Shown: positions 13,620 through 19,562 of the stretch, one piece after another
Numbering within the stretch: the stretch's first letter is position 1
How the letters are laid out: each line of letters opens with the position of its first letter
Virus record (IMG/VR): IMGVR_UViG_3300009159_000431
Location: 1-20,169 of that record
Source of the DNA: a virus
DNA length: 20,169 bases
Strand: one strand, 5' to 3'
The notes under the pieces: generated by a model
What the model was told of the DNA's origin: nothing
Seen by the model: the letters and a program-made list of their open reading frames with translations, nothing else
The model's database searches: none
Position numbers and translations under genes: made by a program

Positions 13620-13627
13620 TATTTATT
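13620..13627 (-). promoter_or_regulatory. Late promoter octamer abutting the 93-aa gene
   Basis: AATAAATA on the minus strand, then CATC, then ATG 13615. It sits in the 17-base gap after the methyltransferase stop. Predicted leaderless or nearly leaderless mRNA. Confidence 0.6.
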
Positions 13628-14385: not shown

Positions 14386-14754
14386 TTATTTGTAGCCTTT
14401 GAATCCTAGAACTGGACTTACGGTGTGAGTATCATCTAATTCTTTACTTTTCATATCACCGTGATTTAGGTCTTTATACTCTGCCCCTACAGCTTTATAT
14501 GCTTGTTTTAGCATTTCCTGTTCTTCCTTAGTATACGGGTGGGTTGATTTCTGTTTACCTATCCAACTTTTTGCTGGCATCTTAAGTGGATCTTTTCCAT
14601 TTGCACCTGCTACCGCCATACCTAAACGGTATGCAGTATAATCACCGCTCACATGTTCACTATCACCATAAGTGTTTAGCCCAGCTGTCGATTGAGCTTG
14701 TCTTTTAGAAATTTTCTTTTGGCTAGATTCCGAGATGAATTCATGCGCTCTCAC
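14386..14754 (-). CDS. Unknown MRAHEF-type protein (122 aa), GTG start
   Basis: The start codon is GTG at 14754, giving MRAHEFISE; AGGAG lies seven bases upstream inside the end of the preceding gene, and start and stop codons overlap. The 122-aa protein has a basic stretch KKISKRQAQSTAGLNTYGD, a core AYRLGMAVAGANG, and a C-terminal half rich in charged residues (HPYTKEEQEMLKQAYKAVGA, ending PVLGFKGYK). An MRAHEF(I) opening followed by an acidic residue recurs at the start of diverse proteins in marine T4-like phages, and may be a prohead-targeting or protease-processed leader (my inference). It lies among structural genes; function unknown. Confidence 0.8.
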   Translation of the reverse strand: MRAHEFISESSQKKISKRQAQSTAGLNTYGDSEHVSGDYTAYRLGMAVAGANGKDPLKMPAKSWIGKQKSTHPYTKEEQEMLKQAYKAVGAEYKDLNHGDMKSKELDDTHTVSPVLGFKGYK

Positions 14755-15590
14755 ACAAATACTCCTGTATCAGATTGGTATGAGAATAAGTGTTGTATGG
14801 CTAGATTGGGGATAGGTGAAACCATTAATCTAAGATTTCCATATGCAATATCAACATTGTATCTAGTTACTGCATTACCAATAAACACTGTTCCGAAAAT
14901 AGTATGTTGTGCCCTAATACCGTCGTGTCTTTTATGTACTACAATAGTAGCAGTTTGACTATCATTTGAATCAACTACATAGCTAGATATTTGAAACTTA
15001 ACTGTAGAAAAGGATAATTGCGGAAGTTCATATATTACTTGATTTGCTGTATTATTGGGTGTTGTAAAACTTTCAGAGTTAATTGAAATTCCACCATTCA
15101 GTCCTATCCCTCCCTGAATAGTCATAGTTCCGGTACTAGTTACGTTCCCAATAGAAAATATATCGCCACTAGAATAGATATTACCTACTTGAATATCAGA
15201 TTGTATTAAATTGTTTGCTTGATTGTAAAAACTTAAAACACCCAAATTCTCTCGAATACTTACATTACCGATGTGCAGTGAATCATTCTTTGCTAACCAT
15301 AAATTTGCATATCGCTTTTCATCACTGCCTAAATCAACTATATTTGTTGTAATAGGTACCATGTCTGTATTCATTCTAACAGCATTATTTGGTACATCGT
15401 ACACTAAATTAGCTGTTCCGCCACTTAATCCGTTATTGTTATACTGAATAGCTGTGTTTGGTCCACCCTGATTTAATGTGGGGATTCTAGCAAAATTATT
15501 GTTTATTTTGTCAAATGCTACACGAAGAGGATCACCTGTACCATCATTTGGTAGTTCTCCTATATCGATAAATTCAATTAATTGTGGCAT
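14751..15590 (-). CDS. Tail-fibre-like structural protein
   Basis: This 279-aa protein opens with a segment I recognise from phage tail-fibre and collar-type proteins: IGELPNDGTGDPLRVAFDKI followed by NNNFA (residues about 11-34), an attachment-type N-terminus. The middle is repetitive and beta-rich, with Asn/Gly/Ile turns (IYSSGDIFSIGNVTSTGT, then GGIGLNGGISIN), as expected for a trimeric fibre shaft. The end (about 200-279) is a globular beta domain with IVVHKRHDGIRAQHTIFG. It is the first gene of the late minus-strand run to the left of the divergent promoter pair, overlaps the next gene by four bases, and has a GAG ribosome site a few bases before ATG 15590. Whether it is a long-fibre, whisker or baseplate component is unclear. 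Confidence 0.75.
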   Translation of the reverse strand: MPQLIEFIDIGELPNDGTGDPLRVAFDKINNNFARIPTLNQGGPNTAIQYNNNGLSGGTANLVYDVPNNAVRMNTDMVPITTNIVDLGSDEKRYANLWLAKNDSLHIGNVSIRENLGVLSFYNQANNLIQSDIQVGNIYSSGDIFSIGNVTSTGTMTIQGGIGLNGGISINSESFTTPNNTANQVIYELPQLSFSTVKFQISSYVVDSNDSQTATIVVHKRHDGIRAQHTIFGTVFIGNAVTRYNVDIAYGNLRLMVSPIPNLAIQHLFSYQSDTGVFV

Positions 15591-15619: not shown

Positions 15620-15644
15620 GTATTTATGATAAATTAATAAATAC
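15620..15644. promoter_or_regulatory. Divergent pair of late promoters in an inverted repeat
   Basis: GTATTTAT (15620-15627) and ATAAATAC (15637-15644) are perfect inverted repeats 9 bases apart. The left arm read on the minus strand is CATAAATAC, firing toward the fibre gene (ATG 15590); the right arm on the plus strand is AATAAATAC, firing toward the nuclease (ATG 15651). Confidence 0.75.
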
Positions 15645-15650
15645 ATAACT

Positions 15651-16091
15651 ATGAAAAAACTATTATTTATACTACTATTATCCACATCGGTGTCCGGGGC
15701 TATAGCTCAAACACAAAAAGCAGGTGTCACATATGATGCATTGATTACCAGAGTTATCGATGGTGACACAATTGCATTTCAAGCACCATTCTTACCGGCT
15801 CCGCTAAAACCCGAGCTAAGTATTCGTGTATTCGGTGTTGATACTCCCGAAAAAGGTTTCCGTGCTAAATGCCCAAGTGAGGCACAGCGTGGGGAGGCTG
15901 CAACCGCATTCACAAAACAACAAATTGCTAATGCACAAAAGAAGCAAATTATACTGATGGACTGGGATAAGTACGGCGGACGTGTTTTAGGTGACGTTAT
16001 TTTAGACGGCAAAAGTTTAAGAGGGATGCTTATCCAGCAGGGTTTTGCACGTGAATACTACGGTGAAGCCAAGACTTCGTGGTGTAATTAA
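15651..16091 (+). CDS. Secreted thermonuclease (SNase-like)
   Basis: This 146-aa protein is the only gene on the plus strand. It begins with a clear Sec signal peptide (MKKLLFILLLSTSVSGAIA, likely cut after residue 19), followed by a staphylococcal-nuclease fold: VIDGDT (35-40), RVFGVDTPE (59-67) with the family's Arg59, Asp64 and Glu67, and DKYGGRVLG (106-114) with Arg111, matching the SNase catalytic set Arg35/Asp40/Glu43/Arg87. Cys74 and Cys145 could form a disulphide in the periplasm. The family degrades DNA and RNA with calcium. It is expressed from a late-type octamer seven bases before the ATG. It is convergent with the lysis lipoproteins, and the two stop codons overlap in TTAA. A role in degrading DNA in or around the cell at lysis is inferred. 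Confidence 0.92.
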   Translation: MKKLLFILLLSTSVSGAIAQTQKAGVTYDALITRVIDGDTIAFQAPFLPAPLKPELSIRVFGVDTPEKGFRAKCPSEAQRGEAATAFTKQQIANAQKKQIILMDWDKYGGRVLGDVILDGKSLRGMLIQQGFAREYYGEAKTSWCN

Positions 16092-16345
16092 AATCCAAAT
16101 ATATTTTTAGGTAGTTCAATTACAACGGGTTGTCTAGCCTGTTGTAGTTGTTGTAATAATAAAGTCCCGTTCTGTCTAACACTAGGATCGGGACTTTTTA
16201 ACATCTCTGATATGGCTAACATACGAGTAGTTTCGGTGACAGTAATGTCTCTGGATATAGATTTCTGTGCTTCTACATACACAGAATAATCTTTACTAGC
16301 ACATCCCGAAATCATTAATGATACGAGTAGTATGATGTATTTCAT
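16088..16345 (-). CDS. Small lipoprotein, third gene of the lysis-like cluster
   Basis: This 85-aa protein begins with a lipoprotein signal (MKYIILLVSLMISGC) with lipobox ISGC and acceptor Cys15. The mature part is about 70 residues, mostly helical (VYVEAQKSISRDI, then GTLLLQQLQQARQ), with no membrane segment. It overlaps the preceding lipoprotein gene by four bases (ATGA), so it belongs to the same unit. Its reading frame carries, on the opposite strand, a hairpin with a T run that can end the nuclease transcript. It could be a second outer-membrane spanin partner, a periplasmic factor protecting against superinfection, or a regulator of the pair; the sequence does not decide. Confidence 0.78.
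   Translation of the reverse strand: MKYIILLVSLMISGCASKDYSVYVEAQKSISRDITVTETTRMLAISEMLKSPDPSVRQNGTLLLQQLQQARQPVVIELPKNIFGF
16161..16199 (+). terminator. Terminator for the nuclease, embedded in the opposing lipoprotein gene
   Basis: On the plus strand AAAGTCCCG, a 19-base loop, and CGGGACTTT continuing into more T residues (to 16199) form a 9-bp stem with a T run, 70 bases after the nuclease stop. It lies wholly within the coding sequence of the convergent lipoprotein. Confidence 0.65.
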
Positions 16346-16608
16346 TTGACTTCGTTAAAGATTTTCTTTTGAGCTTCATACCACTCTTGCCAACCTTCTA
16401 CTTTAGTAGAACATTCATGGTACAATGAATAATTGTGTACAATAACTTTTAACATTTCTGTTATAGCTACTTTATCACCCTGTATAAGTTTAAGACTTTC
16501 ACATTTTTCTTTGAGAACTTGAGGAGCTTCGGGGAACTTTCTAGCAACAGGAACAGTTGTACTGCATCCTGCAAGAATAATTACCAATGATACAATCAAT
16601 AATTTCAT
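16342..16608 (-). CDS. Outer-membrane lipoprotein, o-spanin-like
   Basis: This 88-aa protein has a classic lipoprotein signal: MKLLIVSLVIILAGC with lipobox LAGC and acceptor Cys15, followed by Ser-Thr (not Asp), which favours outer-membrane sorting. The mature part begins with a Pro-containing stretch (TTVPVARKFPEAPQVL) and then a helix ending VEGWQEWYEAQKKIF; two more cysteines sit in it (EKCESLK and HECSTK). In Gram-negative phages an o-spanin lipoprotein pairs with a coiled-coil i-spanin to fuse inner and outer membranes at lysis. The gene overlaps the upstream membrane coiled-coil gene by four bases, the arrangement typical of spanin pairs. The spanin call rests on architecture, not on a family match. 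Confidence 0.72.
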   Translation of the reverse strand: MKLLIVSLVIILAGCSTTVPVARKFPEAPQVLKEKCESLKLIQGDKVAITEMLKVIVHNYSLYHECSTKVEGWQEWYEAQKKIFNEVK

Positions 16609-17081
16609 TTCTTGTCCTTTGGTTCAGCGGCTTTGTTTAATATTGATATTGCGGCATCGTTATGTATATCAATAATTGCTTTAGGTACAGGACACGTTTC
16701 AATGTACTTGATAACTTCTTCAGTCTTAATGACTTCTTTATCAATGTACTTGATTATGTCTTTACCTTTTTCTCTGATAACTTTAGTCTGTGTTACAATC
16801 TTTTCTTGTACTTCCACATTCACCGTTTTAGCTTTTTCTTCAGCTACAGCTACTTTGGCTTCCATTTCCTTAACTCTAGCTTCCCATTCTTTATAGTCTG
16901 CTAATCCTCCCTCTAGGTATAATCCCAAAGAAAGTACAAGTAAACTAATGACTTGAATCGGTATTTTATATTGTTTGACTAAAGGAATCATTCCCAAAAC
17001 AAATCCAGCAACCGTGCCTATAATTCCCACTGTGAGAATTAGATGAAACGCCCATTCGGGCAAAATAGATATTATCCACAT
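16605..17081 (-). CDS. Membrane protein with coiled coil, i-spanin-like
   Basis: This 158-aa protein has two hydrophobic segments (about 10-35, AFHLILTVGIIGTVAGFVLG; and 42-60, IQVISLLVLSLGLYLEGG), then a long charged coiled coil (about 63-130, YKEWEARVKEMEAKVAVAEE onward, rich in K, E and V) and a short tail with VPKAIIDIHNDAA and AAEPKDKK. A coiled-coil arm anchored in the inner membrane next to overlapping lipoprotein genes fits an i-spanin. The two membrane segments are unusual, because most i-spanins have one; the N-terminus must be outside for the arm to face the periplasm, or the first segment may be re-entrant. A combined holin/spanin role is possible. A late octamer lies five bases before the ATG; there is no Shine-Dalgarno sequence. 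Confidence 0.7.
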   Translation of the reverse strand: MWIISILPEWAFHLILTVGIIGTVAGFVLGMIPLVKQYKIPIQVISLLVLSLGLYLEGGLADYKEWEARVKEMEAKVAVAEEKAKTVNVEVQEKIVTQTKVIREKGKDIIKYIDKEVIKTEEVIKYIETCPVPKAIIDIHNDAAISILNKAAEPKDKK

Positions 17082-17085
17082 AATG

Positions 17086-18048
17086 TTATTTATTAAAATA
17101 AGTAGAATTAGATAGCCATTCGTAGTAATTACGGAAACCTTCTTCTACATCAACTTTGGGGTCAAATCCAAAGTCTTTTCTTGCGGCATCAATATTCAAT
17201 GCTCCCCTGCTAGGGAAGTCCGGGTCTTTGTCACGGACATTTACTGTCCCTGACCCGGCAATACTAACTGCTAGATTTGCCGCATCTAGCAAACTGTAGC
17301 TATGACTTTTTGTTATATTGTAAGTCTTATTTTCTGTGTTATCACTCAATGCTGCCGCAACAATACCATCTGCCGCATCATCAACATACGTGAAGTCTAA
17401 TGTCTCACTCGCACCATTAACATTCAACGTGCCTCCTCGCATTGCAGTAAGCATAAACTTAGCAACAACCCTATCTTCTACGTCTAGAGGTCCGTAAACA
17501 GCACTAGGACGAATAATAGTATAAACCATGTTGTCCTTTCGTGCATAATCTTTAACTAGCCACTCGCCTGCTAATTTCATAATCCCGTATTGTCCTTGTG
17601 GTTTACATACGGCATCTTCAGTAACATCGTCAGTAAAATCTCCATACACCATTGAACTACTAATGTATACAAATTTGCGTACTTCATACTTAGCACTAGC
17701 TTCTAGCAAGTTGAGCAACCCTTCACTCATAACACGACTTCCCCTAGTGGGATTTGCGTTAACTACTTTTTGTCTTGGAAAGCTAGCCATATGAATTACG
17801 ATCTCCGGCTGTTCAATATTAAACACACTGTCAACATCATCATCATCACAAATGTCTTTAGAATAGATAAAACTCTCATCCCCGATTTTTTTCAATCGTT
17901 TACGCATCAAATAATCAATTTCATCGTAGGAGATAATTCCATAAGTTGTTTTGGTATCCATAATAGATATAATGTGACCTTCATCTTGTAATCGCTTGAC
18001 TACATTATGTCCGATAAGCCCCAAACCACCTGTTACTAGAATGTTCAT
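17086..18048 (-). CDS. NAD-dependent nucleotide-sugar epimerase/dehydratase
   Basis: An extended short-chain dehydrogenase of 320 aa. The Rossmann start MNILVTGGLGLIGHNVV holds GxxGxxG (7-13); the active-site set is SSSMVYG (Ser130-132) and YGIMK (Tyr154, Lys158), and RPSAVYGP (180-187) follows as in UDP-glucose 4-epimerase-like enzymes. I chose ATG 18048, which overlaps the upstream stop in ATGA, because it opens the Rossmann strand; the 15 extra upstream residues have no family support. Such enzymes remodel nucleotide sugars. In a phage this may alter host surface glycans or supply sugars for virion or DNA decoration (inference); the exact sugar cannot be read. It lies downstream of thyA in one operon. 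Confidence 0.9.
   Translation of the reverse strand: MNILVTGGLGLIGHNVVKRLQDEGHIISIMDTKTTYGIISYDEIDYLMRKRLKKIGDESFIYSKDICDDDDVDSVFNIEQPEIVIHMASFPRQKVVNANPTRGSRVMSEGLLNLLEASAKYEVRKFVYISSSMVYGDFTDDVTEDAVCKPQGQYGIMKLAGEWLVKDYARKDNMVYTIIRPSAVYGPLDVEDRVVAKFMLTAMRGGTLNVNGASETLDFTYVDDAADGIVAAALSDNTENKTYNITKSHSYSLLDAANLAVSIAGSGTVNVRDKDPDFPSRGALNIDAARKDFGFDPKVDVEEGFRNYYEWLSNSTYFNK
17087..17094 (-). promoter_or_regulatory. Late promoter octamer abutting the i-spanin-like gene
   Basis: AATAAATA on the minus strand, then ACATT, then ATG 17081. Part of the octamer overlaps the epimerase TAA stop codon. Predicted to switch on the lysis cluster late, with a leaderless mRNA. Confidence 0.6.
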
Positions 18049-19554: not shown

Positions 19555-19562
19555 TATTTATG
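19555..19562 (-). promoter_or_regulatory. Late promoter octamer abutting the 98-aa gene
   Basis: CATAAATA on the minus strand, then TAGC, then ATG 19550. The TAA in the octamer is the stop codon of the upstream gene. Confidence 0.55.

What the first reader, a model, noticed from the sequence alone, without database searches (positions are those of the whole stretch)
15651..16091. Signal-peptide-bearing nuclease as the only plus-strand gene, facing the lysis genes
A complete SNase active site (Arg59, Asp64, Glu67, Arg111) behind a Sec signal peptide means the enzyme is exported, away from phage DNA replicating in the cytoplasm. Driven by a late promoter and next to spanin-like genes, it could destroy incoming DNA of competing phages in the periplasm, break up released host DNA that would trap virions at lysis, or recover nucleotides.
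Basis: partly seen in the sequence, partly recalled or inferred. Interest (0 to 1): 0.62.

Follow-up and report, generated by a model that had tools for sequence, protein, structure and literature searches.

The report
Exported nuclease carried by aquatic phages
This phage carries one intact copy of a DNA-cutting enzyme that is built to be pushed out of the infected cell's cytoplasm, and relatives of it are common in phages from lakes, rivers and seas, often among the genes that burst the cell, which suggests that many phages deliberately clear DNA outside the cytoplasm.

Summary
Window 15651-16091 (+) encodes a 146-aa staphylococcal-nuclease homologue. All catalytic and metal-site residues are present, a type-I signal peptide precedes them, and the mature domain is under strong purifying selection. 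It is the only convincing plus-strand gene and meets a lipoprotein gene and an o-/i-spanin pair tail to tail. The window comes from a large T4-like phage.

The export claim is now better supported. About 240 viral relatives in three groups nearly all keep a signal peptide of freely varying sequence. They also keep two invariant cysteines, which suggest a disulphide. Cyanophage SNases lack both. Rhizobium phage Y65 carries one enzyme of each kind.

The late-promoter claim is only partly supported: the AATAAATAC motif is real, but three of the four nearest relatives lack it.

The lysis link is real but not exclusive. In one phage group (C) the nuclease sits between holin and endolysin in essentially every locus. 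In the window's own group it also occurs inside the ribonucleotide-reductase cluster or near terminase and tail genes.

Best reading: a mobile, single-copy, exported nuclease that destroys DNA in the periplasm and the lysate. Whether the benefit is virion release, superinfection exclusion or nucleotide supply is unresolved.

The parts
15651..16091 (+). exported staphylococcal-nuclease-like enzyme (146 aa)
   Evidence: PF00565 E=6.1e-11; phrog_452; PDB SNase; fold match 1snd E=3e-9
15651..15707 (+). type-I (Sec) signal peptide, residues 1-19, predicted cleavage AIA|Q; no lipobox
   Evidence: sequence; conserved as a feature but not as a sequence in 80/80 close relatives; not tested experimentally
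15825..15983 (+). catalytic residues Arg59 (15825-15827), Asp64 (15840-15842), Glu67 (15849-15851), Arg111 (15981-15983); metal ligand Asp39 lies upstream at 15765-15767
   Evidence: alignment to 4r8n; invariant in A1 and A2
15870..16085 (+). invariant cysteine pair Cys74 (15870-15872) and Cys145 (16083-16085), likely disulphide
   Evidence: invariant in A1 and A2; absent from cyanophage SNases without signal peptide; bond itself inferred
15636..15643 (+). late-promoter-like AATAAATA; the ATAAATA core begins 14 nt before the ATG
   Evidence: kept in L006, lost in L002/L003/L005
15621..15628 (-). divergent late-promoter-like CATAAATA for the tail gene on the other strand
16088..16345 (-). small lipoprotein gene (85 aa, lipobox ISGC), overlapping the nuclease stop tail to tail
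   Evidence: sequence; no family match above cut-off; kept in L002, L003, L005
16342..16608 (-). o-spanin-like lipoprotein (88 aa)
   Evidence: phrog_16495 and phrog_456 Rz-like spanin, E=2e-7 and 2e-5; LysC PF23793 below cut-off
16605..17081 (-). i-spanin-like membrane protein (158 aa)
   Evidence: phrog_4952 E=3e-9, phrog_312 Rz-like spanin E=0.002
14751..15590 (-). tail-fibre-connector-like protein, divergent neighbour
   Evidence: phrog_677 E=1e-5

Best explanation
The gene encodes an active, Sec-exported, probably disulphide-stabilised SNase made by the phage during infection. Shown by sequence: intact catalytic site, SNase fold, signal peptide, cysteine pair, purifying selection, one exported copy per contig in the contigs tested. 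Inferred: it accumulates in the periplasm, kept away from replicating phage DNA. There it can cut any DNA that reaches the periplasm, and when holin, endolysin and spanins open the cell it mixes with the released chromosome, cuts it (Ca2+ being available outside) and frees virions from viscous host DNA. I take lysis-stage DNA clearing as the commonest selected benefit, with destruction of DNA in the periplasm before lysis as a possible second one.
For: Enzyme identity. Export: signal peptide in 80/80 (A), 80/80 (B) and 72/79 (C) relatives, while the signal sequence itself varies freely against a nearly invariant mature domain. Natural control: cyanophage SNases lack both signal peptide and cysteine pair, and Rhizobium phage Y65 has one enzyme of each kind. 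Single copy. Selection: dN/dS about 0.03-0.07. Lysis link: in group C a GH19 endolysin begins within 300 nt downstream in 52 of 52 testable loci, with a holin-like gene nearby in 55 of 58 distinct proteins. In group A there are spanin-endolysin-SNase-holin loci, and loci where an endolysin-domain protein abuts or overlaps the SNase start. Groups A and B both contain the window's arrangement, a SNase converging on spanins. The trees need several separate changes of context. Precedent: Spd1 of S. pyogenes was proposed to lower viscosity after lysis and help virions diffuse away (Broudy et al. 2002, as cited in PMC2658872).
Against: In the window the nuclease is not co-oriented with the spanins, and no endolysin or holin is in the window. 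In two 340-kb relatives the endolysin lies about 190-200 kb from the nuclease, which instead sits by terL. About a third of distinct group A proteins lie in the nrd cluster (21 of 62, against 14 of 62 near lysis genes). Only 5 of 58 distinct group B proteins are near recognised lysis genes. There are no expression, export or activity data. Start codons were chosen partly for hydrophobicity, which could inflate signal-peptide counts, although alignment A1 shows the same result.
Confidence: 0.45

Rival explanations
1. Superinfection exclusion: the exported nuclease cuts DNA of a second phage as it crosses the periplasm, replacing or adding to host periplasmic endonuclease. A sub-variant: it removes the periplasmic DNA thought to signal lysis inhibition in T4-like phages.
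For: Right compartment and right substrate. Phages in the nrd context would probably make it before the late stage, when exclusion pays most. The window belongs to a T4-like phage, and T4 lysis inhibition is thought to respond to something like periplasmic DNA (PMC6832632).
Against: Strong linkage to endolysin and holin in group C points to the end of the cycle. Tailed phages usually shield DNA during entry (general knowledge). No imm- or sp-like neighbour was noted.
Confidence: 0.22
2. Nucleotide or phosphate scavenging: the nuclease digests DNA outside the cytoplasm, host phosphatases release nucleosides, and these are taken up to feed dNTP synthesis.
For: In 21 of 62 distinct group A proteins the gene lies next to nrdA, nrdB, thioredoxin or thyX, often between nrdA and nrdB. 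A Rhizobium phage with a 44%-identical enzyme shows the same linkage. Group B has 7 of 58.
Against: No transporter or phosphatase gene was seen alongside. The window itself is not in this context. Group C phages never show it. Free DNA outside one cell is a small source compared with the host chromosome inside.
Confidence: 0.22
3. A passenger (moron-like) gene that moves between loci and gives the infected host or the phage population a diffuse advantage, such as loosening DNA-rich biofilm matrix after lysis, without a role in the infection cycle of the cell that makes it.
For: Many contexts in related phages and opposite orientation in the window. GIY-YIG-like genes (cluster 11) lie near the nrd copies, which could help movement.
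Against: dN/dS well below 1 and near-universal signal peptide and cysteines; strict synteny in group C argues for a cycle-linked role there.
Confidence: 0.11

Closest known systems
Staphylococcal (micrococcal) nuclease, PF00565
   Same: Fold, catalytic Arg/Asp/Glu/Arg set, metal-site Asp, secretion signal, about 30% identity
   Different: Phage-encoded, shorter C-terminus, KYGGR instead of KYGR loop, an added cysteine pair with a C-terminal WC motif
Cyanophage 'endonuclease' (SNase upstream of terL; T4-like GC 228 in P-SSM7 and P-HM2)
   Same: SNase domain in T4-like aquatic phages, sometimes directly upstream of terL
   Different: No signal peptide and no cysteine pair: presumably cytoplasmic
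Exported SNase of Rhizobium phages RHph_Y65 / TM30 and Caudoviricetes sp. ct7L0027 (Manatee Spring)
   Same: Signal peptide, cysteine pair, same catalytic set; members of the same exported family
   Different: 44-51% identity; placed by ribonucleotide reductase and by a GH19 endolysin respectively
Phage-encoded extracellular DNases of Streptococcus pyogenes (Spd1, Sda1)
   Same: Phage-encoded exported DNase proposed to aid virion escape after lysis (PMC2658872)
   Different: Gram-positive prophage enzymes, known as virulence factors; to my knowledge not SNase-fold (not tested)
SP-beta-type phage thermonuclease-family protein (Bacillus phage BUCT083)
   Same: Phage-carried SNase-family protein
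   Different: Longer protein (891-nt gene) in a temperate Bacillus phage, outside lysis and nrd modules; about 30% identity to a group C query

Membership tests
SNase family (PF00565) | Score above the curated cut-off | tested here: met
   43.2 bits against 21
SNase family (PF00565) | Catalytic Arg35, Glu43, Arg87 and metal ligands Asp21, Asp40 | tested here: met
   R59, E67, R111, D39, D64, invariant
SNase family (PF00565) | OB-fold nuclease structure | tested here: met
   AlphaFold2 model matches 1snd, E=3e-9, TM 0.60/0.67
SNase family (PF00565) | Ca2+-dependent cleavage of DNA and RNA to 3'-phosphates | not testable with these tools
   needs an enzyme assay
Sec-exported soluble protein (type-I signal peptide) | Basic n-region, hydrophobic core, AxA site, no lipobox | tested here: met
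   sequence; conserved across relatives; no trained predictor was available
Sec-exported soluble protein (type-I signal peptide) | Actual export and cleavage | not testable with these tools
   needs a reporter fusion or mass spectrometry
Phage lysis-cassette component | Adjacent to spanin, endolysin or holin genes in this window | tested here: met
   o-/i-spanins about 250-520 nt away, convergent; no endolysin or holin identified in the window
Phage lysis-cassette component | Co-oriented, presumably one transcript with the lysis genes in this window | tested here: not met
   opposite strands
Phage lysis-cassette component | Linkage conserved in relatives | tested here: inconclusive
   58/58 in group C, 14/62 in A, 5/58 in B distinct proteins
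Phage lysis-cassette component | Needed for or helping lysis or virion release | not testable with these tools
   needs a deletion mutant
Cyanophage-type cytoplasmic SNase | No signal peptide, no cysteine pair | tested here: not met
   window has both; cyanophage proteins have neither

The most novel reading that the evidence does not exclude
Aquatic phages commonly carry a further lysis-stage enzyme beside holin, endolysin and spanins: a pre-exported nuclease that cuts up the host chromosome as the cell opens, so that virions are released into thin rather than viscous DNA. It has been taken up repeatedly into lysis cassettes of unrelated phages.
Probability: 0.35. Interest if true: 0.75.

Novelty: new variant of a known kind. 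Interest (0 to 1): 0.52.

Why it matters
[quoted passage not shown] Here an exported nuclease under strong selection recurs in hundreds of aquatic phage contigs, in one group in essentially every lysis cassette examined. That makes the question directly testable, and a cultured relative exists (Rhizobium phage RHph_Y65 gp211). If true, it changes how virion release and DNA release from viral lysis are pictured in lakes and seas, since much of the dissolved DNA set free by such phages would already be cut.

Tried and rejected
(1) Bacterial origin or misassembly: a scan of 84,980 bacterial and archaeal genomes gave only three relatives above 38% identity, all on MAG contigs that I did not examine and that may be viral or misbinned; the rest are 30-38%. 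I read the family as phage-borne. (2) Late promoter as decisive: rejected, because the motif is absent from L002, L003 and L005. TATAAATA-like sites with one mismatch are not enriched over the whole window (40 found, 58 expected); only the exact ATAAATA placed just before starts is. (3) Lipoprotein anchoring: no lipobox in the window protein; 2 of 80 in group A matched a loose pattern. (4) sigma-70 promoter and terminator scans found nothing beyond chance. (5) Tree of contexts: only about 120 columns, most forks unresolved, so numbers of moves are minimum counts on a weak tree. (6) Literature searches for a SNase in a phage lysis cassette found none; most subscription journals are not held, so this is weak evidence of absence.

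Full report
What is there. Window 15651-16091 (+) is an intact 146-codon gene. The protein matches Pfam SNase (E=6.1e-11, twice the cut-off score), phrog_452 endonuclease and solved staphylococcal nucleases. An AlphaFold2 model (pLDDT 85) finds SNase as its best match (1snd, E=3e-9). Against the nearest orthologues dN is 0.01-0.03 and dS 0.40-0.49, so the enzyme is under strong purifying selection.

Where it sits. The window is part of a T4-like phage: UvsW-like helicase, UvsX, UvsY, gp32-like protein and thymidylate synthase and a T4-type large terminase whose closest named relatives at 49% are jumbo phages PA5oct and Phosso. All convincing genes but the nuclease are on the minus strand. The nuclease shares a short divergent region with a tail-connector-like gene. 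Tail to tail it overlaps an 85-aa lipoprotein gene, followed by an o-spanin-like lipoprotein and an i-spanin-like protein. No endolysin or holin was identified in the window.

Export. The N-terminus is a textbook type-I signal peptide. The best test available here is comparative. Eighty close viral relatives (group A), 80 found with a Rhizobium-phage enzyme (group B) and 80 found with a Manatee Spring phage enzyme (group C) were extracted. By a strict rule (hydrophobic core, early basic residue, AxA site) 80/80, 80/80 and 72/79 have a signal peptide, and 79/80, 79/80 and 79/79 end in a WC motif. Start codons were chosen partly for hydrophobicity, so these counts could be inflated, but the alignment A1 shows the same picture with signal peptides that differ in sequence and length in front of a nearly invariant mature part. 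Cys74 and Cys145 are invariant in A1 and A2. SNases of six cyanophages have neither signal peptide nor this cysteine pair, and Rhizobium phage Y65 carries one enzyme of each kind, gp211 exported by the nrd genes and gp364 not. This is a natural control: cysteines and signal peptide come and go together. A disulphide in an oxidising compartment is the simple reading, though the bond itself is inferred.

Late promoter. ATAAATA occurs 9 times in the window, 5 of them within 60 nt upstream of a gene start on the same strand (p=1e-5). In group A loci the motif begins 11-14 nt before an ATG far more often than control heptamers (20 of 83 de-duplicated sites; controls 0 to 10 of 95-242, the highest being the overlapping heptamer AATAAAT). 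The nuclease has such a site, and its divergent neighbour has the motif 37 nt before its start. But L002, L003 and L005, the same locus in close relatives, lack it. So the nuclease is plausibly late in this phage, but that is not a conserved property.

Contexts. Clustering of neighbours in group A and Pfam shows four settings for the same single-copy gene. First, lysis: spanins, GH19 endolysin, SNase and a GTA_holin_3TM-like protein in a row; or an endolysin-domain protein whose stop overlaps or abuts the SNase start; or, as in the window, spanins converging on it. Second, the dNTP-synthesis cluster: nrdA, SNase, thioredoxin, nrdB with thyX and primase upstream. Third, between tail genes and terminase. 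Fourth, a slot before a PP-loop (TilS-like) gene and DNA polymerase. Of distinct proteins, 14 of 62 in A, 5 of 58 in B and 58 of 58 in C lie within 1.5 kb of a lysis gene; 21, 7 and 0 lie near nrd genes. In group C the GH19 endolysin begins within 300 nt downstream in all 52 loci with enough sequence. The trees need several changes of context even on a poorly resolved topology. In two 340-kb relatives the endolysin is about 190-200 kb from the nuclease and terL is 0.3-2.5 kb away, so the lysis link is not a general rule for group A. In G016 (L162, the window's arrangement in group B) spanins adjoin, terL is about 5 kb away and the endolysin about 58 kb away.

Function. The enzyme can only meet DNA outside the cytoplasm: incoming DNA in the periplasm, or the host chromosome once the cell opens. 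I favour DNA clearing at lysis because of the group C cassettes, the repeated association with endolysin, holin or spanins in different arrangements, and the precedent argued for streptococcal Spd1 (PMC2658872). The nrd association, kept in a Rhizobium phage at 44% identity, is the main counter-evidence and may mean the enzyme serves different ends in different phages.

Comparison and novelty. The protein is a member of the SNase family by every feature tested. Phage SNases and phage-encoded extracellular DNases are known. What I did not find described is a large family of phage SNases that is uniformly exported and repeatedly placed in lysis cassettes or nrd clusters of aquatic phages; a 2022 review says active degradation of extracellular DNA by phages has not been reported (PMC9145820). 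I rate it a new variant of a known kind.

Limits. No expression, export or activity data exist here. Signal peptides were judged by rules, not a trained predictor. Contig collections are redundant; distinct protein sequences were used for counts but phage lineages are not independent. Spanin assignments rest on weak profile matches, and the holin and spanin counts in groups A-C rest on profiles built here from group A proteins.

Noticed in passing
window 13620-13627 (-), 15636-15643 (+), 17087-17094 (-), 19555-19562 (-); group A loci: Late-promoter-like NATAAATA: its ATAAATA core begins 11-14 nt before several start codons that lack a Shine-Dalgarno sequence, while other genes have GGAG-like sites. 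If T4 spacing holds, transcripts would start at or within about 3 nt of the ATG: near-leaderless late mRNAs. De-duplicated, 20 of 83 ATAAATA sites fall at this spacing, above all control heptamers.
   Followed up: partly
L083 5893-6351 and L114 2285-2707 (NC_070967.1 gp211 and gp364): Rhizobium phage RHph_Y65 carries two SNases, one with signal peptide and cysteine pair by the nrd genes, one with neither inside a tRNA array.
   Followed up: partly
L195-L274, e.g. L198 and L266: Group C phages show a highly conserved order holin-like gene, (small gene), exported SNase, GH19 endolysin.
   Followed up: yes
L022, L040, L055, L167, L170, L185, L189: A Dps/ferritin-like gene is a direct neighbour of the exported SNase in several phages of groups A and B, on either strand.
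   Followed up: no
L009, L019, L041, L056, L068, L071: Runs of one to several radical-SAM/SPASM protein genes lie between tail genes or SNase and terminase in jumbo phages.
   Followed up: no
L013 4628-6004, L016 2-1375, L017 4628-6004: A 457-458-aa protein with a GH19-like endolysin domain at its C-terminus and a long N-terminal extension; its stop overlaps the SNase start by 4 nt.
   Followed up: no
L085, L086 (genome contigs): MAG contigs labelled Sphingobacteriales and Armatimonadetes encode 61-66%-identical SNases; possibly misbinned phage DNA.
   Followed up: no
window 16088-16345 (-): A conserved 85-aa lipoprotein of unknown function lies between the o-spanin and the nuclease and is kept in L002, L003 and L005.
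   Followed up: no
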